From Thiomicrorhabdus sp. (GTDB taxonomy: Bacteria; Pseudomonadota; Gammaproteobacteria; Thiomicrospirales; Thiomicrospiraceae): DNA of 64,000 nt. The position numbers and the translations under genes are program-made. The stretch covers positions 1-64,000 of the forward strand of contig NZ_OY759719.1 of the NCBI RefSeq assembly GCF_963662555.1, given 5' to 3'. Position 1 is the stretch's first letter, and every line of letters begins with the position of its first letter. This document shows, one piece after another, positions 2,110 to 52,807 of this stretch. The notes beneath the pieces are model-generated. The model saw only the letters and a program-made list of their open reading frames with translations, was not told the origin of the DNA and did no database searches.

Positions 2110-2844
2110 ATGCCTTTAAAAACACCTATTGATTCACCTTTTTTTAAAGCCACCAATCGTTTTACCAGGCCTGGTAAAACAGTAAGTGGTTTTTTTATTA
2201 CTGGCACAGACACAGATGTTGGCAAAACCTATGCATCTGGTTGTATTGCTCATACCTTAATAAGCAACGGTATAAAGGTTATTCCTCGTAAACCCATAGC
2301 CTCGGGCTGTATCAAACAAGCCGACGGCAGTTTAGTCAGTGGCGATGCTCTATTTTTAAAGCAAGCTTGTGAATCTTCCGATCCCATCAGCACTCTTTGT
2401 CGCTACCAATTTGAACCACCCGTTTCCCCTCAATTGGCTATAGAACAAGCAGGCCTGTTTATTTCTACTGACGATTTAGTAAAGGCATGTGATCTTCCCC
2501 AAACACCGCCAGAAAATACACAGTATTTAGTTGAAGGTGCAGGTGGATTTTTTTCCCCACTGTGTTCTGATGGTTTAAACCAAGATTTAGCCAAGGCTCT
2601 TAATTTACCGGTTATTTTGGTGGTTAAAAACCAGCTTGGTTGCATAAACCACACCTTACTTACCCTTCACGCTATTGAACAAGCAGGCTTGCAAACCCTA
2701 TGCATTGTGCTTAATTTTGCAGACCAAACCAATCACCTAAAAGGCATAGAAAACTGGACAGACATTCCAATTATTAATTTGCCAATCTGTAAAAACTACA
2801 CGCCATCGCCTGTCATTATTTCTGAATTTTTATCGTTAATTTAA
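2110..2844 (+). CDS. bioD: ATP-dependent dethiobiotin synthetase
   Basis: Closes the ureido ring of dethiobiotin from 7,8-diaminopelargonate, CO2 and ATP, the penultimate step of biotin synthesis. The P-loop GTDTDVGKT lies near residue 32, followed by KPIASGC near 60 and VEGAGGFFSPL near 141, all typical of BioD. The length of 244 is slightly above usual because of about 25 extra N-terminal residues. That extension contains a perfect copy of the dispersed palindrome (2164-2175), read as TRPG, so the repeat may have been added to the gene end. No other bio genes are in the window. The start lacks a strong ribosome-binding site, and an internal start is possible. Confidence 0.93.
   Translation: MPLKTPIDSPFFKATNRFTRPGKTVSGFFITGTDTDVGKTYASGCIAHTLISNGIKVIPRKPIASGCIKQADGSLVSGDALFLKQACESSDPISTLCRYQFEPPVSPQLAIEQAGLFISTDDLVKACDLPQTPPENTQYLVEGAGGFFSPLCSDGLNQDLAKALNLPVILVVKNQLGCINHTLLTLHAIEQAGLQTLCIVLNFADQTNHLKGIENWTDIPIINLPICKNYTPSPVIISEFLSLI
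2164..2175. repeat. Dispersed palindrome, perfect copy, inside bioD
   Basis: ACCAGGCCTGGT with flanks extending symmetry to TTTACCAGGCCTGGTAAA. Read in the frame ACC AGG CCT GGT as Thr-Arg-Pro-Gly. Confidence 0.95.
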
Positions 2845-3066
2845 ACAACTGTAAACCTATTCAAAGCCATGTTTTATCTTCAAAACGCTCACTCTCTTTG
2901 AATACACCTCACCACCTATAAACAGAATATTTTAAGCATAATTAAACTCAATCATGCTACCTAAAAATATGCAGTATCATCTGTATATATCGTATTTTTT
3001 AGTATATTCAGCCCATTTTCCGTACAGCGACGTATGTGATAATTTTTAGGATATAAAGCCTCCTTA

Positions 3067-4446
3067 ATGCAGTCAGCCTCTCTTCCTTTTAGATATATTG
3101 TTTATGTACTTTTAGCATTATGGCTAAAGCCAGCAATTGGTTTTGCCAGCACAAACACTTACACAGATTTTGAGCAATCTATATTTGAATCACCTTTTGT
3201 GAAGTTGGATGAAATTACTGGAACGGTTATAGGCCAAGGCTTTACCGACCAAGCGCTATTGAAAAACTCGGTTTATGGCTTATTGGAGTTGAAAAAAACG
3301 TTAAACGACACTGAACTAGAAATAGGCCTAGCTTTTGATAGCATCGATAACCAGCCTAAAATCAATACGCTTTCTTACACACATTATTTTGATGACTATG
3401 AAATAAAAATAGGTAAGTTCGTTTCAAAGATTGGGGTCCTTGATTTTTTCAGCTGCATTGATGTCTTAAATACAACCCGAATTCAATATTACGATGAAGA
3501 GAATATTAATCTTCGTCAAAGACCATCTTTACTTGGGCAATTTAATTATTTTTTAGATGAAAACAGCACACTCAATTTCATTGTGGCTCCCTATGATGAC
3601 AACCGACGAGATTACGTAAATCAATCCATTGGTCTTTCCTTAAATATTGGCGTACCGTATTACCTTCTAAATAGCGGTAATAGCACCATAGACCTTATCG
3701 CTAAACCCATTCTGTTACCTGTCTATAACCAAGGAGCTAAACAGGCGGTTAGTAAATATATAGACAACAAGCTACCTAAAAATCATATTGAATTAGATAC
3801 CACTACATTTGCTATGAACTATACAACTTATCAAAACCAATCGACTTTTGGGGCTGTGTATATCAATGGGTATTCAAATATCCCTATAATAAAGCTTGAC
3901 CCTGATTTGATCGCCGCGGTAGAAAATTTAAATGACGAAGATGCCGTAAATTATATCGACACCTATTTACAAAAAGACGAAAACGAACCCATAAAATCCA
4001 TTCAATACAATCGTTATAACCAAATTGCTGTTTATACCGAAACCGCGATTCAGTCATACGGTCTACGTGCTGAACTTAGCTATAGAGATCAGTTTCCAAT
4101 TATTAATGATGTTACAGAACAACTGAGCTTGGGCTTGGGAATTGATCACAAAGGTGAAATCTATAATAACTTGGAGTTACAGTATTTTTATTTACCCAAT
4201 AAGTCAATCAAAGCCTATTATGCAATCTGGCAAATGCGTTTTGACAGCTTTTATATAGGTAAATGGAAAACCCAGATTGAAAATACCTCTAGCTTAGCAA
4301 CCTATGAAAACAACCAGCTATATGGCATGCTGCCTTCTATAAATTTTAACTATAAAAACCTTAATATCTCTTTAAAATACTTAATGCATTCAAAACAAGA
4401 GTTAGTTGAAAACACGGCTATACTCTCTGTAAAGGCGGTATTTTGA
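3067..4446 (+). CDS. Putative outer-membrane beta-barrel protein of an RND-linked module
   Basis: A 459-residue protein with a probable signal peptide (hydrophobic residues about 8-28, cut near GFAS). The rest is rich in alternating hydrophobic/polar strands and aromatic residues, and the chain ends in Phe (LSVKAVF), as outer-membrane barrels do. It resembles the porin-like proteins (DUF1302-type) often found beside MMPL/RND transporters and LolA-like proteins, but I cannot assign a family securely. Its TGA overlaps the start of the downstream transporter gene, which strongly suggests translational coupling. Substrate unknown. The start ATG has only a weak, distant AGGAT upstream. Confidence 0.65.
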   Translation: MQSASLPFRYIVYVLLALWLKPAIGFASTNTYTDFEQSIFESPFVKLDEITGTVIGQGFTDQALLKNSVYGLLELKKTLNDTELEIGLAFDSIDNQPKINTLSYTHYFDDYEIKIGKFVSKIGVLDFFSCIDVLNTTRIQYYDEENINLRQRPSLLGQFNYFLDENSTLNFIVAPYDDNRRDYVNQSIGLSLNIGVPYYLLNSGNSTIDLIAKPILLPVYNQGAKQAVSKYIDNKLPKNHIELDTTTFAMNYTTYQNQSTFGAVYINGYSNIPIIKLDPDLIAAVENLNDEDAVNYIDTYLQKDENEPIKSIQYNRYNQIAVYTETAIQSYGLRAELSYRDQFPIINDVTEQLSLGLGIDHKGEIYNNLELQYFYLPNKSIKAYYAIWQMRFDSFYIGKWKTQIENTSSLATYENNQLYGMLPSINFNYKNLNISLKYLMHSKQELVENTAILSVKAVF

Positions 4447-6299
4447 TTCGCATTATTCGGTTAAGTTTACTTTTGTTATTGGTATTGGGTTCCAATGTTT
4501 TTTTGGCTAAAGATACCACCTTAAAACCGATAGATATTGAACACTTTTTTCCACATAAGGCAACAAAGAGTATTCCGCCAAAAACCTTAGATTTTCGATA
4601 TCTATTTGTCCATCAAGCCAATACCGACAAATTAACGGAATTAGAAGACGAACAGGTCATTAACTATTTTTTAAATATACCTAATTCCCAAAACAACTAC
4701 TTGGTGCTCTATAAAGAACCGCAACAAACCGCACTGTTAAAGTCATTAAACTCTGCCGACTATATGGGCACCCCCATACTTGGTTCTATACTTTCCAATG
4801 AATTTTTGACGGATGTATTCACCTATTTAATTCTATTAATTCCAATCCTAATTCCATTTATTATTTGGTTAACTTCGGTTCGGTATTTGTATAAATTAAC
4901 GCTTGAAGTATCGCTGTTTTCTATCTTAGTACTGGGTTGTATATACGCCTTAAATATCGCTTTAGATGCCGCTTATATGCTGTCACTGCTGTTTGTGTAT
5001 CTGTATGCGTTTACCATGGTGAATCAAATCTACTTCAATGGGATTAAAACCAAACAACTTTTGATGAGTATTGGTGTATCACTGTTAACGACCTGGCTTA
5101 GTGCCATGCTACTCTACTTTTCAGAGTTTGATGTTATTAGTAAATTTGGTTCTTCTTTAACGGTTTGGCTCGCCATACTGACTTTATATTTAGGCCTACG
5201 TTTATGGTTAAAATCAAGAATTGCATTGAATTTAAAGTGGTTTAAACTTAAACCCTTTTACATAAAAAAACACCAGGCCTGGTTATTTATCGTTACCTTG
5301 CTCGTTTTATCTATTGGCCCGTTTATTAAACCTATTGACGTAAACTTAAACCCGTTAAACCTGTCTGCTTTTCAAAATAAAATCGAACAATTTGAGAGCA
5401 AACATATTTTTTCTCAACCTATTCTGATTTCAATACAATCTAAAAATTGCTCTTTTATTAAACTTAGTTGCAATCAAAAACTAGCTAAGATTGAAGACAC
5501 AATCAGCCAGCAATTTCCAATCCCCATGAACAGAGTGACCGATATTAAATCACTTTATAAAAACTTTACTAACCATGAATTTAGCCAGGCTACAAGTGCA
5601 ACTTTTGCTCAATTTAAACTGGCAATGGAAATGATGTCTTCAGAACAATTTCTGTACAACAATAATTACCAAACGGCTTTTATGATGGTTTCTGTAAGCT
5701 TACTTACCCCAATTCAGCAACTTACCCAAACCAAAGACTATTTAGTAAATCTCAACCAACAATACCCCGATTTTAAAATCACTTTATTAGGACGTTTTAA
5801 TGATATTGCACATTATCAATCTATTTTTCTTGATGAGATGTGGTTTGGCATCTTGCTGATATTTTCACTGATTGCGATGAGTCTTATTTTTTATTTTAAA
5901 AACGTCAAAGTGGTTGTTACCCTTATTCCAGCCGTACTGACATTAGTAATTTTTACCGCCATTCACTGGTGGGCTAATATCGATCTTTCTATTATGAGTT
6001 TAATTGCGGTCATTCTGTTTGTAGGCCTTATTGCAGATAATCTGATTCACATTCTTTTTGCCTACAAAATTGTGTTTGAAGATTGCTATAAAACGGCTTT
6101 AAAACCCATTATTCTTTCAAATGTGATTATGATTGTAAGCTTGGGATTAATGCTTTTTTTAGAGAAGGGATTTTTAAAATTCTTTGGACTCGAGCTGGCT
6201 TTATTATTAGCTGTTCATTTACTGCTTATAATATTTTTATTACCAGGCCTGTTAAAAGCCTATTTAACCAGGCCTGGTAAAATGGTTAAAACAAAATAA
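4443..6299 (+). CDS. Compact RND/MMPL-type membrane transporter
   Basis: A 618-residue inner-membrane protein. The order is an N-terminal signal/TM segment, a short periplasmic part (about residues 25-120), a cluster of about five TM segments (about 125-260), another TM near 280, a larger periplasmic domain (about 300-460), then about five TM segments to the C-terminus. This two-half pattern is that of the MMPL/RND superfamily, although the first periplasmic loop is much shorter than usual. FVGLIADNLIHILFAYK near residue 525 matches the charged motif of the RND proton path. It starts at TTG overlapping the upstream TGA. The C-terminus contains two copies of the dispersed palindrome 25 bp apart. 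Related systems move lipids or envelope molecules; the cargo here is unknown. Confidence 0.75.
   Translation: MIRIIRLSLLLLLVLGSNVFLAKDTTLKPIDIEHFFPHKATKSIPPKTLDFRYLFVHQANTDKLTELEDEQVINYFLNIPNSQNNYLVLYKEPQQTALLKSLNSADYMGTPILGSILSNEFLTDVFTYLILLIPILIPFIIWLTSVRYLYKLTLEVSLFSILVLGCIYALNIALDAAYMLSLLFVYLYAFTMVNQIYFNGIKTKQLLMSIGVSLLTTWLSAMLLYFSEFDVISKFGSSLTVWLAILTLYLGLRLWLKSRIALNLKWFKLKPFYIKKHQAWLFIVTLLVLSIGPFIKPIDVNLNPLNLSAFQNKIEQFESKHIFSQPILISIQSKNCSFIKLSCNQKLAKIEDTISQQFPIPMNRVTDIKSLYKNFTNHEFSQATSATFAQFKLAMEMMSSEQFLYNNNYQTAFMMVSVSLLTPIQQLTQTKDYLVNLNQQYPDFKITLLGRFNDIAHYQSIFLDEMWFGILLIFSLIAMSLIFYFKNVKVVVTLIPAVLTLVIFTAIHWWANIDLSIMSLIAVILFVGLIADNLIHILFAYKIVFEDCYKTALKPIILSNVIMIVSLGLMLFLEKGFLKFFGLELALLLAVHLLLIIFLLPGLLKAYLTRPGKMVKTK
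5272..5283. repeat. Dispersed palindrome, perfect copy, inside the RND/MMPL gene
   Basis: ACCAGGCCTGGT read in the frame CAC CAG GCC TGG as His-Gln-Ala-Trp, a different frame from the copy in bioD. Confidence 0.95.
6242..6253. repeat. Dispersed palindrome, near copy (ACCAGGCCTGTT)
   Basis: One mismatch to the 12-mer; centre 25 bp from the perfect copy at 6267. Read as Leu-Pro-Gly-Leu-Leu. Confidence 0.8.
6267..6278. repeat. Dispersed palindrome, perfect copy, at the 3' end of the RND/MMPL gene
   Basis: ACCAGGCCTGGT read as Thr-Arg-Pro-Gly, eight codons before the stop. Confidence 0.95.
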
Positions 6300-7126: not shown

Positions 7127-7127
7127 T

Positions 7128-10912: not shown

Positions 10913-11024
10913 CCCTATGCTTACACCATTTTAGATGGTCACAGGGCATACCAGGCCTGATATTTTTTGAATTTACCCTATGCTCACACCATTTTAGATG
11001 GCCACAGAGCATACCAGGCCTGGT
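10913..11024. repeat. Two tandem 48-bp hairpin repeats ending in the dispersed palindrome
   Basis: Units at 10913-10960 and 10976-11023 are about 90% identical, 63 bp apart. Each begins CCCTATGCT, contains ACCAT-TTTAG-ATGG, which can form a hairpin, and ends with a copy of the dispersed palindrome (ACCAGGCCTGAT at 10950 in the first, perfect at 11013 in the second). The first unit can also pair GCCCTATG with CACAGGGC. They lie between the convergent metY and DUF3240 genes and could act as bidirectional termination or processing signals. Confidence 0.85.
11013..11024. repeat. Dispersed palindrome, perfect copy, downstream of metY
   Basis: TACCAGGCCTGGTA at 11012-11025, forming the end of the second 48-bp tandem unit. 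Confidence 0.95.
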
Positions 11025-16940: not shown

Positions 16941-18308
16941 CTATCGAGGCCTAAAAATAATCTGTACTTTTAAACCACCCAAATCCGAACGACTAAATTG
17001 TAATTCGCCTGAATAGGCCTCTACTAAGTCTTTAACAATCGATAAGCCAATACCGTGACCGGGAATGCTTTCATCCGCTCTAAAACCACGGGTTTGTAAA
17101 CTGTTTAACAGTTCATCACTCACACCTTTACCATCATCCTCAATCATAATGGTTGTACAACCTAGTTGTTCGGTAAGAGTAAAGGTCACTTGTGTTCTTG
17201 CCCATTTAAAGGCGTTGTCTAATAAATTACCAAATAACTCAAAGCCATCTTCTTTTTCAATGACCAGGCCTGGTAAATCAGGCAAATTAAGATTTAGCTG
17301 TATATTTTTGACTTGATGTAATTGCTTTAACGAGTCGGCTAACTCCTCCAAATCACTTTTATAATCAAAACGATTACTTAATGGAGCATCTGAAGCGATT
17401 CGGGCTTTTTTAAGCTCTCTATCAATTAAATGATGAATCTTAGACAATTGCTGCTGCATCTGTTGCTGAACAACCTGCAAATTTTCTGGCGAAGGATTTA
17501 TGGCGACTTGCTCTAAAATTTGAAAGGCTAAATTTAGCGGTGTTTTTAAGGCGTGCGACAGATTAGCATTAGACTGACGAGACGTTTTTAATTGTTTAGC
17601 CGCTTGTTGCAATGCTCCTTTTAAAGCTTCAATCAGCGATTCAACTTCTTTTGGATATTGAGTCTGATCAATGGAAAATTGATGAGTGATCTCTAAATCT
17701 TTTAGCTGTTTCTCAATGGGCGCCAACTGTGTAAAGGTACGCTTTAAAATCCATTTTTGTAACGCATAAAGTAGCAATAACGTAATTAAAGCAAAGCTAC
17801 CAAACACCCAATCAAAATATTTTAAACTCTCTTGTATCGGAGAATGATCCTCAGCAACATAGAGACGGATTGGCACATTGTTTTTACTGGTTTTAGTTGC
17901 TAAAACCAGCAGTTTTGATCGTTTAACTTGATCACCCTCTCCAACCAAAGGCCCTAAGGTTTCATACACCAAGTTTTCATTATCACTGTTTTTCCAGGCC
18001 TGTAACAACAAAGGGTATTGGTTTAATGAGGGGGATTTAAAGATTTGTTGACCCACTTTTACAACAAAGTAATGGCCCGAATGCGTTTTAGAGTAGATAG
18101 GTTCAATATTCTCAATGTCTAAATGCCATTGATTATTTTTAAGGTGCAGGTTTTTCACCACCGCTTCTGAATCATGGTCTAAACGAGTTAACACATAGTC
18201 ATCTGCAACCTGATGAATGGTATTGATTGAAAACCACCAAAACAAAATAAAGACACCCAGCACACTTAGCCCAAGTAAGACGGATAATTGATGCTGCAGT
18301 GATTTCAT
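16941..18308 (-). CDS. Two-component sensor histidine kinase
   Basis: An inner-membrane sensor of 455 residues. TM1 lies at about residues 8-28, then a periplasmic sensor region to about 155 and TM2 at about 160-180. The phosphoacceptor is in SNLSHALKTPLNLAF, the N box is ELFGNLLDNAFKWA, the G1 box EDDGKGVS and the G2 box GHGIGLSIVKDLVEAYSG, so all catalytic elements are intact. I start at the ATG at 18308, just past the regulator's stop; an upstream in-frame ATG overlaps the regulator. It lies before a metal efflux operon, which suggests metal sensing, but no metal ligands are evident. One perfect dispersed palindrome lies in the ATPase domain. Confidence 0.93.
   Translation of the reverse strand: MKSLQHQLSVLLGLSVLGVFILFWWFSINTIHQVADDYVLTRLDHDSEAVVKNLHLKNNQWHLDIENIEPIYSKTHSGHYFVVKVGQQIFKSPSLNQYPLLLQAWKNSDNENLVYETLGPLVGEGDQVKRSKLLVLATKTSKNNVPIRLYVAEDHSPIQESLKYFDWVFGSFALITLLLLYALQKWILKRTFTQLAPIEKQLKDLEITHQFSIDQTQYPKEVESLIEALKGALQQAAKQLKTSRQSNANLSHALKTPLNLAFQILEQVAINPSPENLQVVQQQMQQQLSKIHHLIDRELKKARIASDAPLSNRFDYKSDLEELADSLKQLHQVKNIQLNLNLPDLPGLVIEKEDGFELFGNLLDNAFKWARTQVTFTLTEQLGCTTIMIEDDGKGVSDELLNSLQTRGFRADESIPGHGIGLSIVKDLVEAYSGELQFSRSDLGGLKVQIIFRPR
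17263..17274. repeat. Dispersed palindrome, perfect copy, inside the sensor kinase gene
   Basis: ACCAGGCCTGGT; on the coding strand read as Leu-Pro-Gly-Leu-Val, a third reading frame of the same DNA word. Confidence 0.95.
17993..18004. repeat. Dispersed palindrome, near copy (TCCAGGCCTGTA)
   Basis: Nine to ten central bases match the 12-mer; in the periplasmic-domain part of the kinase gene. Confidence 0.6.
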
Positions 18309-18309
18309 T

Positions 18310-19029
18310 TTATTCGCTACCCTCTTCTTGAGCAGGAATTGAATTGTCATCCGCTAATGTTAGTCGATACCCCTGTCCACGCTGGGTTAGAATAGCTTCT
18401 TTTCCAAGGTATGAACGTAATCTACGGATATAAACTTCAATAATGTTTGACTCTTTTTCATCGTTGCTTTCGGAGATTTTATCGAGCAAAACTTGTTTAG
18501 AAAAAACCTGCTGTGGGCGACTAAAGAATGCGTACGCTAAACGGTATTCTGTAACGGTGAGTACTTGTGGTTGTTGATTAATTAATAAACTTTTTGATTG
18601 GGTGTCTAAACAGACTGAATCTAAGCCTGCGATGTGTTTAGGTGAAAAACAGATGGCATCACGTTTAGGCAAGTGGCGTTTAACTAACGCCTCAATTCTT
18701 GCCAATAATTCTTCAAAATGGAAGGGTTTGCCTAAATAATCGTCGGCTCCTTTTTTTAATCCTTCTACGCGCTCTTGCCAGCTATTACGTGCCGTAAGAA
18801 TTAAAATAGGAATAGAGATGTTAGCCTCACGAAGTTTCTCTAAAACAACCAGGCCTGGTAATTTTGGTAAACCTAAATCCAGAACAATCAGATCGTATTG
18901 ATGCTCTAGGGCTAAATACAAACCTTCTTCACCGTCATAAGCCGTGTCAACAATAAAACCTGACGTTTTAAAACGCTGGGTTAAATTTTCCACCAGTAAA
19001 GGTTCATCTTCAACCAATAGTATTTTCAT
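18310..19029 (-). CDS. OmpR/PhoB-family response regulator
   Basis: A DNA-binding regulator of 239 residues. The receiver domain (about 1-120) shows LLVEDEPLLVE, the phosphorylated Asp in LIVLDLGLPKLPG, LTAR and the conserved Lys in DYLGKPF. The C-terminal winged helix (about 135-230) ends with NIIEVYIRRLRSYLGK and TQRGQGYRL. It is paired with the kinase downstream and most likely controls the efflux operon. The gene starts 18 bp after the carbonic anhydrase stop in the same direction, so it may be co-transcribed with it. A perfect dispersed palindrome encodes part of the KLPGLVV stretch just after the phosphorylated Asp. Confidence 0.94.
   Translation of the reverse strand: MKILLVEDEPLLVENLTQRFKTSGFIVDTAYDGEEGLYLALEHQYDLIVLDLGLPKLPGLVVLEKLREANISIPILILTARNSWQERVEGLKKGADDYLGKPFHFEELLARIEALVKRHLPKRDAICFSPKHIAGLDSVCLDTQSKSLLINQQPQVLTVTEYRLAYAFFSRPQQVFSKQVLLDKISESNDEKESNIIEVYIRRLRSYLGKEAILTQRGQGYRLTLADDNSIPAQEEGSE
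18848..18859. repeat. Dispersed palindrome, perfect copy, inside the response regulator gene
   Basis: ACCAGGCCTGGT read as Leu-Pro-Gly-Leu-Val, in the receiver domain three residues after the phosphorylated Asp motif. Confidence 0.95.
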
Positions 19030-26666: not shown

Positions 26667-27593
26667 TTAACGCGTATCAGACATAACTAATAGTTTATTA
26701 ATATCAACAGAATTTAAGAATTCCAAAAAAGCTTGTGCAGCAGGAACTAATGATTTACCAGCCACTTTTGCTACATACCAATCTCGTGTAATAGGAAACC
26801 CTTCAACATCCAAAACATCTATATGTCGGTAGCGATTTTCTAACCGAATGGCTTGCTTAGGTAAAACAGAAATACCTAAACCTGCCATTACTGCTTGTTT
26901 AATACTTTCAGTACTTCCTAATTCCATATAAGGTTCAAGATTAATACCGTTTTCAACAAATCTTTCTTGCACAGAATCACGAATACCAGACCCTTTTTCA
27001 CGCATTAAAAAGCGTTCATTTGAAAGAGCTGTAATAGGAATTTTTTTCTCTTTAGAGAGAGAATGTTTTGGCGGAGCAACTACCACAAGCTCGTTTTGAA
27101 AAAACGGAAAAGCTTGCATATTTAAGTCTTCGGGAACTCGCCCCATAATAGAGAGATCATATTGATTATGCTTGATTTCATCAAGGATTCGACGACGATT
27201 AATAACCGTAATCATTGGCTTAACATCAGGGTAACGATTAAGAAATGCTTTAAGAATATAAGGCATAAAATACTTGGCTGGGGTCACCACGGCAATACGC
27301 AACTCACCATCAATACGAGCCTGCTCAGACTTGATACTAATATTAAGATCATTTAACTCAGCTAATATTTTTTTACAGGTCTTAAACATATGTTCACCAG
27401 GCCTGGTCAAAAACAATTTTTTACCAACAACTTCAATAAACTTGACGTCATTATTCTCTTCTAAACGCTTCACCTGAATGGAAACTGCAGGCTGAGTTAG
27501 ACTTAATTCTTCCGCTGCTTTTGTATAACTTAAATTACGTGCAACCGCTTCAAATATGCGGATTTGCTGGGCAGTAATATGGAGATTATGCAT
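26667..27593 (-). CDS. cbbR: LysR-family regulator of RuBisCO genes (CbbR), divergent from cbbL
   Basis: A 308-residue LysR regulator, divergent from cbbLS as is usual for cbbR. The helix-turn-helix is LSYTKAAEELSLTQPAVSIQVKRL (in two parts, residues 21-44), and the effector domain has VTPAKYFMPYILKAFL and FLMREKGSGIRD. It is a paralogue of the gene at 25660, with the same domain motifs but clearly different sequence, so each RuBisCO operon may have its own regulator. A perfect dispersed palindrome (27396-27407) lies in its 5' part, read as Thr-Arg-Pro-Gly. Confidence 0.92.
   Translation of the reverse strand: MHNLHITAQQIRIFEAVARNLSYTKAAEELSLTQPAVSIQVKRLEENNDVKFIEVVGKKLFLTRPGEHMFKTCKKILAELNDLNISIKSEQARIDGELRIAVVTPAKYFMPYILKAFLNRYPDVKPMITVINRRRILDEIKHNQYDLSIMGRVPEDLNMQAFPFFQNELVVVAPPKHSLSKEKKIPITALSNERFLMREKGSGIRDSVQERFVENGINLEPYMELGSTESIKQAVMAGLGISVLPKQAIRLENRYRHIDVLDVEGFPITRDWYVAKVAGKSLVPAAQAFLEFLNSVDINKLLVMSDTR
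27396..27407. repeat. Dispersed palindrome, perfect copy, inside cbbR
   Basis: ACCAGGCCTGGT read on the minus strand as Thr-Arg-Pro-Gly, at the end of the DNA-binding domain. Confidence 0.95.
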
Positions 27594-29595: not shown

Positions 29596-29920
29596 TAACA
29601 GCGTTTTACGCTCTTATTAATATCAGGTGTTAATTTATAAATTTACCAGGCCTGGTAAATTTATAAAACACCGCCCTTTTAGACTAGAAAAACTTTTTTC
29701 TAGTCTATCCAAATTCTGAGAAATGCCTACACAACTAAGTCTAGGCCTTTCTTAACCAAGTTTGCTAAATCACTTTTATACCTCACGATTTAGTAAAACA
29801 GGTCGGCTGGCCCCGAAACTGGCCGACCTTTCACTTTAGATTTGTTTATTTCTAAATAAGTGAACAAATCTAAAAGTTTGAAAACTCTTTTTTGAATTTG
29901 TCATGTTAACGGAGAATCCC
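29596..29920 (+). other. Hairpin-dense gap between cbbS and cbbQ
   Basis: Six inverted repeats follow one another: a perfect 34-bp palindrome (29634-29667) built around ACCAGGCCTGGT; TAGACTAGAAAA / TTTTCTAGTCTA (29680-29707); GAAATGCCTA / TAGGCCTTTC (29720-29751); TTTGCTAAATC / GATTTAGTAAA (29761-29797); AGGTCGGC / GCCGACCT (29800-29829); and TTTAGATTTGTTTA / TGAACAAATCTAAA (29835-29874). None has a long T-run directly after it, so processing or stabilisation of the cbbLS message is at least as likely as termination. GGAGA before 29921 is the cbbQ ribosome-binding site. Confidence 0.8.
29645..29656. repeat. Dispersed palindrome, perfect copy, after cbbS
   Basis: ACCAGGCCTGGT at the centre of a perfect 34-bp palindrome (29634-29667), the longest symmetric flanks of any copy in the window. 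Confidence 0.97.
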
Positions 29921-30743: not shown

Positions 30744-30755
30744 ACCAGGCCTGTT
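30744..30755. repeat. Dispersed palindrome, near copy (ACCAGGCCTGTT)
   Basis: One mismatch; in the 73-bp gap between cbbQ and cbbO. Confidence 0.75.
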
Positions 30756-33927: not shown

Positions 33928-34803
33928 TTATTTTGCCAACATATTACCCAGAATTCTGCGTGCATCTTTAGCTAACTCAGGTTGACTACCTTCCAACATA
34001 TTAATAATCGTGATAGTGAGTTCTTGTGCAGCACCGTCTTTAAATCCAGGCATATTTTCTAATATTTCAAAAGTCTGGTCTAAAGCTTCTTCATAAGCAT
34101 GTTCAGCAACATAACAAACCGCTAAATACAATCTAGCTTCATAATTAGCTGGATCTTCATCAACCATTTTAATTAAACTTACCAGGCCAGGTGTTTTAGC
34201 CGCCAAATCTTTAAATGTCATTTGACCGACTATTGCTTTACCTATCTCTGAATTTTTATCTTTGTCTGGTAAACGGTTAAATAAAGATTTAGCTTCTTCT
34301 AATTCGTTAATATCTAGTAATATTTGAATCATATCCAGTGCAACACGAGTGTTTCTAGGATCCGACTGTATTGCTTCAGTGAGAGTTTTAATTGCACCTG
34401 CTGTATCGTTATTTAGATGCATCTGCTTGGCCTTTTCACGCATATCATCTGAAGCTTTATAAATACCGAAAGATTTTAGTAAAGCAGCTAATTCTGCCTC
34501 TTCTAAAAGACCCACTTCTTGATGGACCATCTCACCATCTTTAAACACTTTTAAAGTCGGTACATTAACAATCTCATATTGCTCACGTAAGTCTGTTTCC
34601 ATATCGATATCAATACGTGCCAATAAAAACTCACCAGCAAAGTCTTCTGCATATTTTGTAAGAAGATTTTCTAACTGAATACACATCCCTAAACTTGGGC
34701 TCATAAACAATGTGAAAACGGGTAATTTATATGAATTCATTAAAACAACAGAATTGAAATTACTTTGCGAAATCTCAAAGTTTAAAACTTGTTTATCACT
34801 CAT
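33928..34803 (-). CDS. cnoX: CnoX-like thioredoxin-TPR chaperone/redoxin
   Basis: A cytoplasmic protein of 291 residues with an N-terminal thioredoxin fold (about 1-110) and a helical TPR-like C-terminal part (about 120-290) with NDTAGAIKTLTEAIQSDPRN and NYEARLYLAVCYVAEHAYEEA. In E. coli CnoX (YbbN) protects proteins from oxidation and feeds them to GroEL. The WCxxC motif is reduced to a single Cys in SPSLGMCIQLENLL, as in the CnoX family. I start at the ATG at 34803 (AAGGAAGG upstream). The dispersed palindrome variant ACCAGGCCAGGT lies within it. Confidence 0.85.
   Translation of the reverse strand: MSDKQVLNFEISQSNFNSVVLMNSYKLPVFTLFMSPSLGMCIQLENLLTKYAEDFAGEFLLARIDIDMETDLREQYEIVNVPTLKVFKDGEMVHQEVGLLEEAELAALLKSFGIYKASDDMREKAKQMHLNNDTAGAIKTLTEAIQSDPRNTRVALDMIQILLDINELEEAKSLFNRLPDKDKNSEIGKAIVGQMTFKDLAAKTPGLVSLIKMVDEDPANYEARLYLAVCYVAEHAYEEALDQTFEILENMPGFKDGAAQELTITIINMLEGSQPELAKDARRILGNMLAK
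34181..34192. repeat. Dispersed palindrome, near copy (ACCAGGCCAGGT)
   Basis: One mismatch in the right arm; inside cnoX. Confidence 0.7.
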
Positions 34804-37839: not shown

Positions 37840-37851
37840 ACCAGGCCTGGT
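37840..37851. repeat. Dispersed palindrome, perfect copy (first of a pair), pgk-pyk gap
   Basis: ACCAGGCCTGGT; the next copy starts 24 bp on, about two helical turns and a bit. Confidence 0.96.
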
Positions 37852-37863: not shown

Positions 37864-37875
37864 ACCAGGCCTGGT
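37864..37875. repeat. Dispersed palindrome, perfect copy (second of a pair), pgk-pyk gap
   Basis: ACCAGGCCTGGT with flanks AATTTT / AATTT; 20 bp from the stop codon of pgk. Confidence 0.96.
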
Positions 37876-42798: not shown

Positions 42799-45700
42799 CT
42801 ATATAACGCCAGTTACAGAACCCTCATTCTCAATTTTGTGTTTATTTTTGGGAGCCCATTTATCCATAAAACCTTCATAAATAGAAAGCATGGCAGGAAG
42901 CACCAACAAGATTAAAAAGGTTGAGAACATCAAACCAAAAGCAATCGCTGTTGCCATTGGAATTAAGAATTGAGCTTGTAAAGAAGTTTCAAACAACAGT
43001 GGCGTTAAACCAGCAATGGTAGTCAGTGACGTTAAGATTACTGCACGAACCCTTTGCACAGCGGCCTCTTCTAAGGCTTTATTAATGCCTAAGCCAGATG
43101 CCCTCAATGATTTATAAAAGCTCACTAAAATAATCGAATCATTCACTACAATTCCTGACAAACCAAAGAAACCAAACATAGACAGAATCGTCATATCTAG
43201 CCCCATCCACCAGTGGCCAAGAATTGCTCCAACCAAACCAAACGGAATCGCCATCATCACCACTAAAGGCCAGCCATAAGAGCCAAACACCCAGGCAAGC
43301 ACAATATAAATCATTGATAAACCAATCAATAACCCTACTTTCATATCGGCCATGGTTTCTGCTTGACGTTTATTTTGCCCTTCGATGGTATAGCTAATAC
43401 CGTATTTTTTCTCTAACTTTGGTAAAGCTGTATTCTTTAAGCTTTCTAAAATCTGATTAGCGTTGTTAGCATTATTATCTACATCACCTAAAACCGTTAC
43501 CGCAAGCTGTCCATCAACGTGTCGCATGGCATCAAAACCTTGCTGAGTTGTCCAACTGGCAACGGAGTTCAATGGCACTCTTTCCCCTTTAGGCGAAACA
43601 ACTTGCATGTTATTGATGGTACCTAAAGAAGCTTGCTGTGACGCAGGAAACTGAACTCGCACTTCAACCTCATCTTCACCATCGGTAAAAATCTGAGCTA
43701 AACGACCAGAAAATGCATCTGATAACTGACGACCTAAAGAAACATAGGTGAACCCTAATGCTTTACCTTGCGGCGTTAAACGATAAATAAGCTGATCACG
43801 ACCAAATGGCAAATCATCTCTAATACCGCTCACACCTTGAATCTGTTCAAGCACTTGCTCCAAATCCAAAGCAGCTTGCTTAAGTTTCATCGGCTCAGCA
43901 CCAAACAATCGCACATCCACATCACTGCCTGGTGGCCCTCCTCTTGGTGCACTAATTGTTAAAGTATCCAGGCCTGGTGCACTGCCCGCTTTTTCTTGCC
44001 ACACTTTCAAAAATTCGGCGTTACGAGTTTTGCGTAAATCAGGCTCTTCTAATTGAACATTAATAGCTGCAAAATTAGCACCCGCTTGCGTTGTAGTTTC
44101 GTTGTAATGCACTACAGCCACTTTAACAATACCCGGCTCCAATTCTTTTTCTGTTGCCAACAAGGCTTCATAAAGATGATCGACATATTTAGCCGATACA
44201 GACGCAGGTGTACCCGCAACAAAGCGTACATCGGCATTTAATTTAGTTGACTCTGGAGAAGGGAAAAACACAAAACCTAAACGCCCACCAGCTAAAAGCC
44301 CAATAACAAAAATCATTAAAGCTAAAGTCGTTGCAATGGTGATACCACGGTGGTTGAGCACCCAACGAATAACATTTCTAAACTGGTGATGCCTAAAATG
44401 ATTAATTCCTGAATCTAATCGATAGCGAATAGAACCTTGTTCTGCTTTTTTAACGCCTTTTAATGCATGACGTAAATGTCCAGGCAGAATGGTAAAACTC
44501 TCAAGCAAAGAAGCAAAAATAACCGCAATAATCACTAATGGAATCGCAAATAAAATATTACCAATCTCACCACCAATTAACATGAGCGGCAAAAATGCAG
44601 CTACTGTCGTTAGCGATGAAGCGGTAACGGGCCCAAGCATACGATGAGCACCACCTTCTGCAGCTTGTAGGTCAGGCTCACCCATTTCATGGTGGGCTAA
44701 AGCATCTTCGCCCACCACAATGGCATCATCAACAATAATACCCAGAGCCATAATTAGGCCGAAAAGGCTGACCATATTAATAGAACCGCCAGCCAGATAC
44801 ATAATCATCAAAGTCGCCATAAATGAGACTGGAATCCCAACAGCAACCCAAAAAGCGACTCGGCCGTTTAAGAAAATATAGAGGATTAATACCACTAGAA
44901 TTAAACCACCAATACCATTGTTTACCAACAACATAATACGTTGGTTAACCAGTGACCAGGTTTCGTCGTAAACTTGCAAATGCACGCCTTTTGGAAGCTG
45001 GGGCGTTACATCTTTAAGCCACTGCTGCATAACTTCTGAGGACTTAAGTGTATCGCCACCTTCAGCACGCATTAACTGCATCTCAATGGCAGGTGTTCCA
45101 TCCACCGTTAAGTAAGGAGCATTTTTAGTTGGTCGCCGTTCAACCTTGGCAACATCCCCTAAAGAGAGATTTTGAGAATCAGAAACCACTAAAGGCATTT
45201 GACTATATGCGATATCAGTTCGTTTTTGCTGCAAGGCACGTAAATCACGCACACTGTCATCATCGCCCACCGAACCGGCAGGGTAATCTCGGCTCATTCC
45301 CGCTACTCGATCACCGATCGACTCTAATGTAAGATTGTATTGATCCAAGGTATCTTGAGAAACCTCAATCGCCATCTGGTCTGTTGGCAAGCCTTTAAAA
45401 TTGACTTTATCAATGCCCCGATTCAGTAAATCACGCTCAAACCCTCTTACTAAGGGTCTAAGTTCCTGAAGACTGCCATTATCCGTTCTCACCAATACTC
45501 GAGCAATTGACTCGTATCTGACAATTCTTTCAATAATGGGCTTTTGAGAGTCTTGCGGTAAGTTCCTGAGCTCACCTACTCGTTGGTTAATTTGATCTAA
45601 GGCCTCGATCATATCGGTGCCTTCTTTAAATTTTAACGAGATAGAAGCCACACCCAAAGAGGAGGTGGATGTCATTTCATCAAGGTTATCAATATTTCGT

Positions 45701-47280: not shown

Positions 47281-47292
47281 ACCAGGCCTGGT
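47281..47292. repeat. Dispersed palindrome, perfect copy, between cca and the adaptor gene
   Basis: ACCAGGCCTGGT with symmetric TTTT / AAAA flanks. Confidence 0.96.
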
Positions 47293-47333: not shown

Positions 47334-48578
47334 TTAACTAAACTGGTTAATAAATTGGGTAATCTGCTGCAGTCGAACCTGTTCAATTGCCTCAGCAATC
47401 TCAGCACCTTTAACACCAGTGGCAAGGATTTCTTGATTATTGACTTGATTGGCAGCTTTTAAAACCTCTAACCAAAACGGTTTTTGTGGGTACTCCACTT
47501 GCTCAAAACCTAATCGCCCTTTGGCATCCGCTTCACAACCCAATAAAATCAATTCAAACTGCTTAACATCTTTTAAAGCACCACACTGTTTTAATACTTT
47601 TAAATAGGTTTTAGGTTTTAAATGCGGCTTGCCCTCAGAAGTTAACCCTTGATGAATAAGCCCATGAAATTCAGTCACTTTCTCTGCCATAATTTGGGTT
47701 TTCTTTGGTAAACGATAACGCTTTGCAAGAGTGGCAACCAAAGGCACACCCGCGGCTTCATGACCATGATGTTTAGGCCATAACTCTTTAGGAGTTAACC
47801 CTTTACCCAAATCATGAACCAGAGCCGCAAAACGTACATTTTCGTCATTGGTTAACTGGGCTGCGGCATCCAACACCATCATGGTATGTATCCAAACATC
47901 ACCTTCCGGGTGATGTTTTTCAGGTTGAGTTACATCATGCAACGCATAAAGTTCAGGAAACAGCTCTTCAACAGCACCAACCTGATCTAATACTTCAAAA
48001 AACACGCTCGGTTTTTCTGTATTCAGGGCTTTAGTAACCTCTTGCCAAACTCGCTCTGGCGTTAAATCAGCCAACTCGCCAGATGCATTCATTTGCGTCA
48101 TCAGCTGTTTGGTTTCTTCTGCTAATGTAAATCCATAAGGGGCAAGTTTAGCCGCAAAACGAGCAACCCTTAATACTCGCAAAGGGTCTTCAGCAAAGGC
48201 GTCAGAAACATGGCGTAATATTCTGTTTTTTAAATCCTCCAGGCCACCATAAGGGTCAATGATATTGCCTTCGTCATCTTGTGCCATCGCATTTATGGTT
48301 AAATCTCGACGAATTAAATCGTCTTGCAAAGTCACGCTTGGATCAGAAAAAACCTCAAAGCCATGATAACCAACCCCCACTTTACGTTCGGTTCTGGCTA
48401 ATGCATACTCTTCTTTAGTTTGTGGGTGTAAAAACACAGGAAAGTCTTTACCCACTTGCTGAAAACCTTGGGCAAGCATCTCTTGTGGTGTTGCACCAAC
48501 CACCACCCAATCATGATCATAGGCTTTACCACCAAGTAAGGCATCTCTTACTGCTCCACCTACCAAATATATTTTCAT
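47334..48578 (-). CDS. cca: Multifunctional CCA tRNA nucleotidyltransferase
   Basis: Adds or repairs the 3'-CCA end of tRNA. It has the [15 protein letters not shown] start, the catalytic DHDWVVVG (paired Asp), and [12 protein letters not shown] and [16 protein letters not shown] in the class II head domain. The HD-phosphohydrolase motif [11 protein letters not shown] near residue 260 makes it the longer, multifunctional type with added phosphatase/phosphodiesterase activity. The length of 414 agrees. A terminator stands between this gene and the one upstream, so it has its own promoter. Confidence 0.95.
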
Positions 48579-48732: not shown

Positions 48733-48758
48733 AAAAGCCGTCTAAATGACGGCTTTTA
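48733..48758 (-). terminator. Terminator after the NAD-binding epimerase-like gene
   Basis: AAAAGCCGTC-TAAAT-GACGGCTTTT, with an A-run before it (T-run on the minus strand). Confidence 0.9.
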
Positions 48759-48791
48759 AATCATATTTTCTTGTAAAACTTCAACGAACAA

Positions 48792-49763: not shown

Positions 49764-49892
49764 GCTTTATCCAATTTTTTTAACAAAACCGAGTAAGAAT
49801 AAGTAAATGCTGATGCAAGGTCAAGTTTTTATCTCAGATTCACCCTGACTATTTTGATACAATACGCTCAAAATTTAACAAAGGATTGACCC

Positions 49893-50189
49893 ATGTCAGT
49901 AATGAACATTTCTGCTTACAGAAGCCCAAAAAAAGCTGAGCTATATCTGTTTGTACCCCAAGAAAACGGTTTGCAAGAACTCCCAAATGAACTGCTTGTT
50001 ATGTTTGGTGAACCTGAGCATATTATTGATTTTGAATTATCGCCTGAAAAAAAATTAGCTAGAGAAGATTCTGCTACGGTACTGCAATCAATTAAAAGCA
50101 AAGGCTACTTCATGCAAATGCCGCCGAATGAAATTGAAAAGTTTGGTGATATGGCTCCGCCACCAGAGCGTTTGGATAATATCTGTTAA
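49893..50189 (+). CDS. ycgL: YcgL domain-containing protein
   Basis: 98 residues with the YcgL pattern: ISAYRSPKKAELYLFVP at the N-terminus, FGEPEHIIDFELSPEKKLARED in the middle and GYFMQMPP at the end. The family is small, soluble and of unknown role in gammaproteobacteria. A strong AAAGGA lies before the start at 49893. The neighbours give no hint of function. Confidence 0.88.
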   Translation: MSVMNISAYRSPKKAELYLFVPQENGLQELPNELLVMFGEPEHIIDFELSPEKKLAREDSATVLQSIKSKGYFMQMPPNEIEKFGDMAPPPERLDNIC

Positions 50190-50345
50190 TAAAAAGTCTC
50201 ATATTCCAAATATAAGTGATTATTAATAGCCACAAATCAAAAAACCAAATAACCAATTAAATCACTCAGGCATTTACAAACGCTTTAATGTGAATACAAT
50301 AGAGTTTTAGTTTTAAATTCAACACACATTTACAAGGAAATCACC

Positions 50346-50957
50346 ATGGCTTTTACTCTTCCAGATCTACCTTATGATTACGACGCTTTAGAAGTATCTA
50401 TTGATGCTCGCACTATGGAAATTCACCATACCAAACACCACAATACTTACATTACTAATCTGAACAATGCCATTGCAGATACTGAATTAGCAGACATGTC
50501 TTTAGAAGATATGATGGCTAAAGCGGGAACTTTACCGCCAGCAATTCGTAATAACGGTGGTGGACACTGGAACCATTCATTCTTTTGGGATGTTATGTCT
50601 GGTGACAGCATGGGAGCTCCAACTGGTGCTTTAGCTGATGACATTAACGCTACATTTGGTGGCTTTGATGACATGAAAACTCAGTTCAACACTGCGGGTG
50701 CAACTCAATTTGGTTCTGGTTGGGCGTGGTTAACTGTTGCTGCTGATGGTTCATTACAAATTTCTTCTACACCAAACCAAGACAACCCATTAATGGATTG
50801 TGCTAAGGTTCAAGGAACACCTATCTTAGGATTAGATGTTTGGGAACACGCTTATTACCTACGTTACCAAAACCTACGCCCAGCTTATATGCAAGCTTGG
50901 TGGGATGTTGTTAACTGGGATAAAGTGTCAGAACTTTATTCTGCGGCTAAAGCGTAA
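50346..50957 (+). CDS. Superoxide dismutase, Fe/Mn family
   Basis: Detoxifies superoxide in the cytoplasm. Its 203 residues show metal ligands His near 27 ([11 protein letters not shown]), His near 79 ([11 protein letters not shown]), and Asp and His in [12 protein letters not shown] near 165. The Gly in GGGHWNH and the Gln in PNQDNPLM are at positions that usually favour manganese, or a cambialistic enzyme, over iron; I therefore give no symbol. The start has AAGGAAA upstream. A perfect terminator follows. Confidence 0.93.
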
Positions 50958-51452
50958 TTTTTACTTTTTTCGCAACACATCTCTTTGCTACTCATTTTAT
51001 ATAAACGTGAGTACTTAAACCTCCTCTTTTGAGGAGGTTTTACTTTATATATCACCACTCTATTTAGTTAAAAATCTTAGTTATAAATCACTCTTTTATT
51101 ACTTTATTGCTCAACTTTTAATCATTTAATAGTTTGTTTTTAAATGCTAATTTAAACCTTACCTTAATCTATCTTAATCAATCTAAGCACCCCACCAATC
51201 TAGTTATCTGTAAAACTCTCATACAATCCTATCTAACTTTTAGAAAAACCAAAGCTTAAGAAAAGCTCGATTTTCTCTTTCAATCTTTTATCAAGTTATA
51301 TCGCATCACCACTATTTCTTAAGGCTTTCTACTCTTTATGAATACAGTTTGTGTGTTTCATTTTTTATGAAAAAAGTGTGATAGATTGAGCTTGAGGTTC
51401 ATAAATTATATTTATAGAAACTGATTAAACGCACACAATTTGGAGGTAAGTT
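50958..51452. other. Long AT-rich gap between sod and sqr
   Basis: About 495 bp. It has the sod terminator at 51017-51041 and near the far end a TTTCAT (51356) / ATGAAA (51367) hairpin. Further on a TTGAGC or TTGAGG with a TATATT about 20 bp later may be the sqr promoter. GGAGGTAA lies just before the sqr start. No reading frame, RNA gene or repeat copy was seen in the rest. Confidence 0.5.
51017..51041 (+). terminator. Terminator after sod
   Basis: AAACCTCCTC-TTTT-GAGGAGGTTT followed by T and A/T-rich sequence. Confidence 0.9.
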
Positions 51453-52754
51453 ATGTCAAATACAAACCAACCCCATGTTCTTGTTTTAGGCGGAAACTTT
51501 GCTGGATTAGGCTCTGCTCAAGCGGTTCGTAAACATGCAGGAAACAACGTTAAAATTACGGTAATAGATAAAAAAAATTACCTACTCTATGTTCCCAATA
51601 TCTCAACTGAAATTCTTGAATCAGACAATTTCAATCTAGAAAAATCACTCACCATGGATTTACCATCCACTCTAAAAAAAGACAATATTGACTTTATTCA
51701 AGGTGAAGTAACCAATATCAACCCTGACAATCAAAATGTCAGCTTTGTTCCGAGTGAACGTCCAGGAGCTGAACAGCAAACCCTAACTTATGACTACTTA
51801 GTCGTTGCTGTTGGCTGCGAACTCGCCTATGACGATATTGAAGGTTTTGCCGAATTTGGTGACACCGTATCCGATTTTTATCATGCCAAAAAGCTCCATA
51901 AAAAACTCCGTCAAGATTACAAAGGCGGCAATATTGTTGTTGGCTCTGCATTATTTCAACAGGGTAATGGTGCTTTAGGTTTAGAGCCTTATCCAGGCGG
52001 TTCAATTCCAGATGCCAAAGCCGCATGTGAAGGCCCTCCTGTAGAAGTGTCATTATCACTCGCCACTTGGTTAAATAAAAACAACAAAGGTGGTCCCAAA
52101 AATATCACCATTACCACACCAGGAGAAATGATTGCCGAAGATGCTGGAGAGAAAGTGGTAACTCAACTACTTGAAGCGGCCTCAAGCATGGGATTTAACT
52201 ATATCAATAACACCGGAGACATTGTTAAGCTGACCGAAAAAACCATTGAATTTGCAAACGGCGATGTCATTGATGCAGAAATAAAAATCCTTTTCCCTAA
52301 CTGGAAAGCCCATCAATTTTTACACGATTTAGCCATTTCCGATGATAAAGGTTTTGTGATTACCGATCTTTATATGCGAAACCCCAAATACTCCAATATC
52401 TTTGCCGCTGGTGACTGTGCTGCAGTTACGATGCCCAAACTAGGTGCCATTGGTCACCAAGAATGTGATATTGTTGGCCGTCAAATAGCCAAAGACACTC
52501 AACATATGCAAGCCAGTGAGGCCGACGTATCTTTGCAACCGATTGTTTTTTGTATTGGTGATATGGGAGCAGGCAAAGCTTTTTATATTCATTCCAATTC
52601 TTGGTTTGGTGGTAAAGAGCAAAGCTTAGTTATGGGGCGTGTGCCGCACTTTTTAAAAATGCAGTACAAACACATGTTTATGAACAGTGACGGTAAAGTA
52701 CCGCCTTGGGGCTTAGATGTTGCTGAAATATTAGCCGAAAAAGTGCCTATCTAG
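51453..52754 (+). CDS. sqr: Sulfide:quinone oxidoreductase-like flavoprotein
   Basis: A peripheral membrane FAD enzyme oxidising sulfide and passing electrons to quinone. The N-terminal VLVLGGNFAGLGSAQAV (FAD fold) and GDCAAVTMPKLGAIG (second FAD motif) are clear. Three Cys stand where SQR needs them: Cys 122 (VVAVGCELAYDD), Cys 192 (AACEGPPVEV) and Cys near 367 (IVFCIGDMGAGKAFYI). Length 433. Together with cydAB, which follows, this allows sulfide to be oxidised with oxygen. It differs enough from type I SQR that another SQR type is likely; substrate not shown by sequence. Confidence 0.85.
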   Translation: MSNTNQPHVLVLGGNFAGLGSAQAVRKHAGNNVKITVIDKKNYLLYVPNISTEILESDNFNLEKSLTMDLPSTLKKDNIDFIQGEVTNINPDNQNVSFVPSERPGAEQQTLTYDYLVVAVGCELAYDDIEGFAEFGDTVSDFYHAKKLHKKLRQDYKGGNIVVGSALFQQGNGALGLEPYPGGSIPDAKAACEGPPVEVSLSLATWLNKNNKGGPKNITITTPGEMIAEDAGEKVVTQLLEAASSMGFNYINNTGDIVKLTEKTIEFANGDVIDAEIKILFPNWKAHQFLHDLAISDDKGFVITDLYMRNPKYSNIFAAGDCAAVTMPKLGAIGHQECDIVGRQIAKDTQHMQASEADVSLQPIVFCIGDMGAGKAFYIHSNSWFGGKEQSLVMGRVPHFLKMQYKHMFMNSDGKVPPWGLDVAEILAEKVPI

Positions 52755-52795
52755 GCACTGTATCTAAATAAAATGAATACATTAAATATAAATTT

Positions 52796-52807
52796 ACCAG
52801 GCCTGGT
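52796..52807. repeat. Dispersed palindrome, perfect copy, between sqr and cydA
   Basis: ACCAGGCCTGGT with flanks AATTT / AAATT; symmetric over 20 bp or more. Confidence 0.96.

What the first reader, a model, noticed from the sequence alone, without database searches (positions are those of the whole stretch)
2164..52807. A perfect 12-bp palindrome, ACCAGGCCTGGT, iterated 12 times within genes and between them
Perfect copies start at 2164, 5272, 6267, 11013, 17263, 18848, 27396, 29645, 37840, 37864, 47281 and 52796; eight near copies start at 6242, 10950, 17993, 30744, 34181, 40364, 43967 and 56445. By chance a given 12-mer would be seen about 0.004 times in 64 kb. Six perfect copies lie inside genes and use all three reading frames (Thr-Arg-Pro-Gly in bioD, cbbR and RND; Leu-Pro-Gly-Leu in the kinase and regulator; His-Gln-Ala-Trp in RND), so selection acts on the DNA and not on the protein. 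Many copies extend to TTTACCAGGCCTGGTAAA. It is like the cyanobacterial HIP1 idea: a highly iterated palindrome that may be a binding site for a chromosome-organising protein, a methylase target or an uptake signal. No copy falls inside the island.
Basis: partly seen in the sequence, partly recalled or inferred. Interest (0 to 1): 0.78.

Follow-up and report, generated by a model that had tools for sequence, protein, structure and literature searches.

The report
Likely DNA-uptake signal, palindromic
A 12-letter mirror-image DNA word repeated 488 times in this bacterial genome looks like a tag by which cells recognise and take up DNA of their own kind, a trait so far described in two other bacterial families; nobody has tested it here.

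Summary
In detail: 12 perfect ACCAGGCCTGGT in the window, 488 in the 2.70-Mb genome, reversed control 0. Across 62 genomes of the family the core CAGGCCTG is bimodal: 236-1173 copies in 32, 0-74 in 30. Ten of those 30 carry another iterated word: CCGGCCGG, non-palindromic ACAGGCCGGGT or TCTGCCAGGCTGGG, or G-runs followed by AAAAATTTT. Sites are enriched between genes, above all convergent ones; arise by substitution; keep their place far above background; use all three frames. Non-palindromic relatives lie on both strands, some as inverted pairs. Cores are followed by an A-then-T tract, as in Haemophilus uptake signals. Two methylase families are absent from the genome and not associated with the word, against a HIP1-like role, though other methylases were not searched. 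ComEC is intact. Best explanation: dialects of a DNA-uptake signal, a third such family beside Neisseriaceae and Pasteurellaceae. The receptor was sought and not found; binding and uptake are untested.

The parts
2164..2175 (.). perfect palindrome, inside ORF 2110..2844 (+)
5272..5283 (.). perfect palindrome, inside ORF 4443..6299 (+)
6267..6278 (.). perfect palindrome, near the end of ORF 4443..6299 (+); near copy 25 bp before it
11013..11024 (.). perfect palindrome between convergent genes
17263..17274 (.). perfect palindrome, inside ORF 16941..18350 (-)
18848..18859 (.). perfect palindrome, inside ORF 18310..19029 (-)
27396..27407 (.). perfect palindrome, inside ORF 26667..27593 (-)
29645..29656 (.). 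perfect palindrome between genes (tandem), with TTT/AAA on both sides
37840..37851 (.). perfect palindrome between genes (tandem), first of two copies 24 bp apart
37864..37875 (.). perfect palindrome between genes (tandem), second of two copies
47281..47292 (.). perfect palindrome between genes (tandem), 41 bp past the stop of ORF 47334..48578 (-)
52796..52807 (.). perfect palindrome between genes (tandem), 41 bp past the stop of ORF 51453..52754 (+)
2448..2459 (.). near copy, 2 mismatches, core CAGGCCTG intact
6242..6253 (.). near copy, 1 mismatch, core intact
10950..10961 (.). near copy, 1 mismatch, core intact
17993..18004 (.). near copy, 3 mismatches, core intact
30744..30755 (.). near copy, 1 mismatch, core intact
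34181..34192 (.). near copy, 1 mismatch within the core (CAGGCCAG)
43967..43978 (.). near copy, 1 mismatch, core intact
56445..56456 (.). near copy, 2 mismatches, core intact

Best explanation
ACCAGGCCTGGT with its A-then-T tails (consensus AAATTTACCAGGCCTGGTAAATTT) is the DNA-uptake signal of this species. Inferred mechanism: a surface receptor, probably a minor pilin, binds the core on free DNA; the flanking A-T tract helps the DNA bend or melt at the outer-membrane pore; ComEC imports one strand; recombination copies word-bearing kin DNA over homologous alleles. Biased uptake makes and keeps the word wherever the sequence is permissive (between genes, at gene ends, at tolerant codons). Related species changed the preferred word, which gave palindromic, asymmetric and poly-G dialects. 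Shown here: copy number, placement, conservation in place, origin by substitution, dialects, tail, an intact comEC frame. Not shown: binding, uptake, receptor.
For: 488 copies, control 0; core bimodal among 62 genomes; four other word types in 10 of the 30 core-poor genomes, two of them non-palindromic with near-equal strand counts (G021 253/250, G063 88/109). 46 of 76 sites in the 13.3% non-coding DNA, convergent spacers richest. Frames of 30 genic sites 9/8/13. Opposite-strand close pairs: 8 in 57 G021 copies, 3 in 28 G063 copies. 22 of 22 alignments of G000 sites to relatives have no gap in the 12 bases, 16 of them to a relative without the perfect word. Perfectly kept at 20 of 30 orthologous places against 77 of 1104 control 12-mers. 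31 of 35 one-mismatch copies differ outside the 8-bp core. A-then-T tract after the core and in G021 a second AT-rich segment (0 of 5000 rotations), as described for Pasteurellaceae signals (PMC1626085, passages). ComEC in 31 of 32 core-rich genomes.
Against: No receptor found: the 11 non-T2SS prepilins of G000 are acidic, the minor-pilin family tested is not associated. ComEC is equally common without the word (17 of 20 none-found genomes), so it does not discriminate. Uptake or competence has not been shown in these genera in anything seen. The second AT segment is weak in the poly-G set (36 of 5000) and absent in G063 and G000; the other side of the G021 word also has an unusual contrast (10 of 5000) though no AT peak (804 of 5000). 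A perfect palindrome is unlike the known uptake words. A specific binding protein of another kind would give many of the same marks.
Confidence: 0.72

Rival explanations
1. Binding site of a cytoplasmic chromosome-organising, segregation or recombination protein (of the SlmA, Noc, MatP, KOPS or Chi sort), whose specificity drifts between species.
For: Palindromes suit a dimeric DNA-binding protein; sites avoid genes and are kept in place.
Against: Core counts per 20-kb stretch are Poisson-like around the sampled chromosome (mean 6.4, variance 6.7), with no ori/ter domain seen; the asymmetric words lie on both strands within single 20-kb stretches, unlike KOPS or Chi; presence is patchy within one genus; relatives use asymmetric or poly-G words.
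Confidence: 0.12
2. HIP1-like palindrome made and kept by DNA methylation and mismatch repair.
For: Palindromic, highly iterated, replaced by other GC-rich words in relatives, and one-mismatch copies concentrate at the ends of the word, as Elhai reports for HIP1 (PMC4390886, abstract).
Against: PF00145: none in G000, 11 of 32 core-rich and 13 of 30 other genomes; PF01555: none in G000, 13 of 32 and 11 of 30; 13 of 32 core-rich genomes have neither. Two dialects are not palindromic. Other methylase families were not searched.
Confidence: 0.07
3. Transcription terminator hairpin or other RNA element at gene ends.
For: Enriched between convergent genes (17 sites in 6.9 kb); asymmetric words form inverted pairs. 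This may well be a secondary use, as in known uptake signals.
Against: 30 of 76 sites are inside genes; most asymmetric copies are single (41 of 57 in G021, 22 of 28 in G063); no terminator needs one fixed core sequence; no long T-run follows in the consensus.
Confidence: 0.05
4. Dispersed mobile repeat (REP or MITE-like).
For: Dispersed and intergenic-rich; one longer form recurs (window 10950 and 11013).
Against: 22 of 22 alignments of sites to relatives have no gap in the 12 bases; beyond the core and tails no longer element is shared by the sites.
Confidence: 0.01

Closest known systems
Uptake signal sequence (USS) of Pasteurellaceae (AAGTGCGGT / ACAAGCGGT)
   Same: Hundreds of copies, strong core, non-coding bias with many genic copies, oppositely oriented close pairs, origin by substitution, an AT-rich segment of A's then T's just after the core, and in G021 a second one further on (PMC1626085 passages).
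   Different: Different core (CAGGCC-type, or poly-G); palindromic in this species with a tail on both sides; uptake and receptor untested.
DNA uptake sequence (DUS) of Neisseriaceae
   Same: Dialects within one family, intergenic preference, inverted pairs at terminators, genic copies too (PMC3630211 passages).
   Different: DUS is asymmetric with no flanking tract and is read by ComP; no ComP-like basic pilin was seen here.
HIP1 of cyanobacteria (GCGATCGC)
   Same: Palindromic, highly iterated, replaced by other words in some relatives, mismatches at the ends.
   Different: No cognate methylase in the two families searched; relatives use non-palindromic words.
Chi / KOPS type oriented motifs
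   Same: Short overrepresented DNA words.
   Different: The asymmetric dialects show no local strand polarity.

Membership tests
DNA uptake signal (DUS/USS) | Hundreds to thousands of copies with a strong consensus core | tested here: met
   488 perfect 12-mers, 904 cores, controls 0 and 1; 76 perfect against 35 one-mismatch copies in 464 kb, 31 of the 35 outside the core
DNA uptake signal (DUS/USS) | Preference for non-coding DNA, with many genic copies | tested here: met
   46 of 76 in 13.3% of DNA; G021 40 of 57, G063 17 of 28
DNA uptake signal (DUS/USS) | Both orientations, some as close opposite-strand pairs | tested here: met
   Only in asymmetric dialects, where orientation can be seen: G021 32+/25-, 8 pairs; G063 12+/16-, 3 pairs
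DNA uptake signal (DUS/USS) | Origin by substitution, not insertion | tested here: met
   22 of 22 alignments ungapped in the 12 bases; 1 of 30 gapped
DNA uptake signal (DUS/USS) | USS only: AT-rich segment after the core and a second one further on | tested here: inconclusive
   First segment seen in most dialects (weak in G035); second clear in G021 (0 of 5000), weak in poly-G (36 of 5000), not in G063 (1799) or G000 (2639)
DNA uptake signal (DUS/USS) | Dialects in related species with a shared inner core | tested here: inconclusive
   Dialects met; CAGGC is shared by the CAGGCCTG, ACAGGCCGGGT and TGCCAGGCTGG words, but not by CCGGCCGG or poly-G
DNA uptake signal (DUS/USS) | Natural-transformation machinery | tested here: met
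   Only ComEC tested: 56 of 62 genomes; 955-aa ORF in G000
DNA uptake signal (DUS/USS) | Sequence-specific receptor (ComP; ComN predicted) | tested here: inconclusive
   Not identified; candidates tried
DNA uptake signal (DUS/USS) | Preferential uptake of DNA bearing the word | not testable with these tools
   Needs an uptake assay
HIP (highly iterated palindrome) | Overrepresented palindrome | tested here: met
HIP (highly iterated palindrome) | Methyltransferase that recognises the word | tested here: not met
   PF00145 and PF01555 only: none in G000 and no association; other methylase families not searched
HIP (highly iterated palindrome) | One-base deviations biased to the ends of the word | tested here: met
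   31 of 35
Chi/KOPS-type motif | Strand polarity along a replichore | tested here: not met
   Strands mixed within single 20-kb stretches of G021 and G063; palindromic in G000, so no polarity is possible there

The most novel reading that the evidence does not exclude
A third, independent family of DNA-uptake signals that exists within one bacterial genus as palindromic, asymmetric and homopolymeric (G7-11 then AAAAATTTT) words, which share with Haemophilus signals the layout 'GC core, then an A-then-T tract'. Uptake specificity would have switched several times within the genus and could be a barrier that separates species.
Probability: 0.55. Interest if true: 0.9.

Novelty: new variant of a known kind. 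Interest (0 to 1): 0.82.

Why it matters
PMC12616744 (2025; [quoted passage not shown] A third family, with several quite different words and species that seem to lack any, would let one test by comparison how uptake specificity arises, which receptor reads it, and whether it isolates species. The A-then-T tract shared with Haemophilus signals points to a common physical need of DNA entry or to a common type of receptor.

Tried and rejected
Methylase link: PF00145 and PF01555 not associated. Receptor: PF12019 (GspH/FimT type) matched 3 of 62 genomes, G011, G026 and G020, all without a found motif; prepilin N-termini were listed in 10 genomes; the A2 minor-pilin alignment scores 285 bits or more in 11 of 32 core-rich and 10 of 30 other genomes, so it is not associated; four tandem small pilins of G000 lie in a type II secretion cluster by gene order; NCBIfam gave only generic prepilin and pseudopilin names below their cut-offs or the N-terminal domain for eight proteins. 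Strand skew was not read from the place list, because it omits a minus-strand copy seen in my sample. An 83,316-bp stretch of G036 without the 12-mer (P 1.6e-8 for that one gap out of 67) holds a TrwC relaxase and an integrase-core gene in one 8-kb sample but type II secretion genes in the other, and each sample has one CAGGCCTG, so I do not claim that it is wholly mobile DNA. In 20 of 62 genomes no motif was found, but only nine of them (G003, G011, G013, G014, G020, G024, G026, G031, G064) were sampled with 20 kb or more; top words of G064 are dominated by an unexamined local repeat. Paper searches: the 12-mer in 0 papers; 'DNA uptake sequence' with 'Thiomicrospira' in 0; of 132 papers only 30 were listed and of 187 only 15, none of those pairing a genus of this family with an uptake-sequence term; one search listed one paper. 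Subscription papers and preprints are not held.
Full report
OBSERVATION. The window holds 12 perfect ACCAGGCCTGGT at the stated places; 20 sites with up to two mismatches against 1.37 expected from shuffles. Two of the eight near copies listed (17993, 40364) have three mismatches. The genome (G000, one contig, 2,696,250 bases) holds 488 copies and none of the reversed control word. In 464 kb of it (window plus 20 evenly spaced 20-kb stretches) there are 76 perfect copies against 0.18 expected from an order-4 Markov model, and 148 cores CAGGCCTG against 15.8 (which stopped later on another sample). Core counts per 20-kb stretch have mean 6.4 and variance 6.7, that is Poisson-like.

WHOSE GENOME. 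G016 has a contig of 2,211,915 bases, the length of NZ_KL370891.1 (Thiomicrorhabdus sp. Milos-T2), and G036 one of 992,021, the length of NZ_LQBN01000001.1 (Thiomicrospira sp. WB1). G064 has the 2,491,293 bases of Hydrogenovibrio marinus MH-110 (PMC6797543, abstract start in the listing). G000 shares the genus label of G016, so it is taken as a Thiomicrorhabdus species; the family name Thiomicrospiraceae is recalled, not from a call.

DISTRIBUTION. Among 58 relatives the 12-mer is rich in some members of the genus and absent or rare in others; the 21 genomes from other families of the class have 0 or 1 copy each. Over 62 genomes of the family (own included) the core CAGGCCTG has 236-1173 copies in 32 and 0-74 in 30; the reversed control has 0-36. 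The 18-mer TTTACCAGGCCTGGTAAA was found in 37 stretches of the 84,980-species collection, 33 of them in four genomes of this group and four single hits elsewhere (the window's own and very near records may be left out there). The 16-mer TTACCAGGCCTGGTAA occurs in four viral contigs, one site each.

DIALECTS. Samples of the relatives show that core-rich genomes differ in flanks: TTTACCAGGCCTGGTAAA (G000, G016, G030)...GGTCA (G019, G036; partly G015, G027)...GGTTA (G033; mixed in G009), AACAGGCCTGTT (G018; mixed in G005), AGCAGGCCTGCT with ACCAGGCCTGGT (G035). Some samples are small. Ten of the 30 core-poor genomes have another word: ACCGGCCGGT in G023 (12 in 40 kb; not counted genome-wide); non-palindromic ACAGGCCGGGT in G021 (253 forward, 250 reverse) and G004 (143, 150), at most 9 in any other genome; non-palindromic TCTGCCAGGCTGGG in G063 (88, 109), at most 2 elsewhere; GGGGGGGWRAAWWTT in six genomes (89-155 each, both strands summed; their reversed control 3-10), at most 1 in each of the other 56. 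In 20 of 62 no word was found, but only nine of these were sampled with 20 kb or more.

PLACEMENT. In G000, 46 of 76 perfect sites lie in the 13.3% called non-coding; convergent spacers hold 17 sites in 6.9 kb, tandem 22 in 42 kb, divergent 4 in 11 kb, 3 could not be classed. The excess between genes and in convergent spacers is strong, the deficit in divergent spacers is not significant (P 0.08). The 30 genic sites use the frames 9/8/13. In G021, 40 of 57 copies are intergenic, 32 on + and 25 on -, genic ones 10 sense and 7 antisense, with 8 close opposite-strand pairs; in G063, 17 of 28, with 3 pairs. In the poly-G genomes 33 of 47 tracts (7 G or more) are genic, with 4 close pairs.

ORIGIN AND MAINTENANCE. 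Sites of G000 align to relatives in 22 cases, none with a gap in the 12 bases; 6 relatives have the perfect word there and 16 do not, so the word arises by substitution. Between genomes that use the 12-mer an orthologous place keeps it perfectly in 20 of 30 comparisons against 77 of 1104 control 12-mers in the same alignments; 1 of the 30 is gapped. Many comparisons are reciprocal or share a site, so far fewer than 30 are independent. Of 35 one-mismatch copies in 464 kb, 31 differ in the outer two bases at either end and 4 in the 8-bp core.

ARCHITECTURE. Read outward from the centre the G000 consensus is CCTGGTAAATTT, stronger between genes (G .91, T .92, A .86 at positions 5-7) than within (.70.70.55). 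After the core, G023 reads TAAAATTT, G063 GATTTT, G021 TTGAGTTTT (all as the strand that runs outward), poly-G AAAAATTTT. In G021 the same side has a second AT-rich segment at positions 19-24 after a GC-richer dip (0 of 5000 rotations reach it); its other side has no AT peak (804 of 5000) but an unusual contrast (10 of 5000). In the poly-G set the second segment is weak (36 of 5000), in G063 and G000 there is none (1799 and 2639 of 5000). PMC1626085 (passages) describes Pasteurellaceae signals as a core followed by an AT-rich segment of A's then T's and a second segment further on, with non-coding bias, closely spaced oppositely oriented pairs and origin by substitution.

TRANS FACTORS. PF00145 and PF01555 methylases: none in G000; found in 11 and 13 of the 32 core-rich genomes and in 13 and 11 of the other 30; 13 of the 32 have neither. 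ComEC (PF03772): 31 of 32 core-rich, 8 of 10 other-word, 17 of 20 none-found; the G000 ORF has 955 aa with Competence and metallo-beta-lactamase domains. G000 has 15 prepilin-type N-termini; four lie in a type II secretion cluster, the other 11 are acidic, pI 4.1-4.8. The A2 minor-pilin alignment is not associated with the word; PF12019 matched 3 of 62. No receptor is proposed.

READING. The features together are those of uptake-signal words; each alone is weaker. That the palindrome lets one site be read in either orientation and double as a hairpin is inference. Confidence 0.72, with an unknown cytoplasmic binder as the main rival.

LITERATURE. PMC12616744: abstract and introduction. PMC4390886: abstract, section 2.5, passages. 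PMC3630211, PMC1626085, PMC1939737: passages. Other papers: listings only. The 12-mer is in no held paper; 'DNA uptake sequence' and 'Thiomicrospira' share none; searches showed no such pairing among the rows listed.

Noticed in passing
L046, L058, L031, L057, L098, L103 and genomes G001, G012, G017, G022, G028, G029: Runs of 7-11 G followed by AAAAATTTT occur 47 times in 83 kb, mostly inside genes, in six incomplete genomes of the same genus. A homopolymer as an iterated word is unusual, since such runs tend to slip.
   Followed up: partly
G036:C1 209038-292354 (L311, L312): 83-kb stretch without the 12-mer; low G+C samples; TrwC relaxase and integrase-core gene in one, type II secretion genes in the other.
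   Followed up: partly
window 10930-11024; G000 101,351: The sites at 10950 and 11013 share 20 upstream bases (TTTAGATGGYCACAGRGCAT), and the copy at genome position 101,351 has a similar flank in the other orientation: a longer form of the repeat.
   Followed up: no
L223-L231, L241: Minor-pilin operons of two kinds, with unusually large acidic pilins of about 460-570 aa, sit between miaB and a porin-like gene or elsewhere and vary between species.
   Followed up: partly
L123-L125 (G064): 12-mers present 18 times and 10-mers up to 34 times in 60 kb of the genome with the length of H. marinus: a local repeat array, nature unknown.
   Followed up: no
genomes G011, G026, G020: The only 3 of 62 genomes with a GspH-family (PF12019) match are all without a found iterated word.
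   Followed up: no
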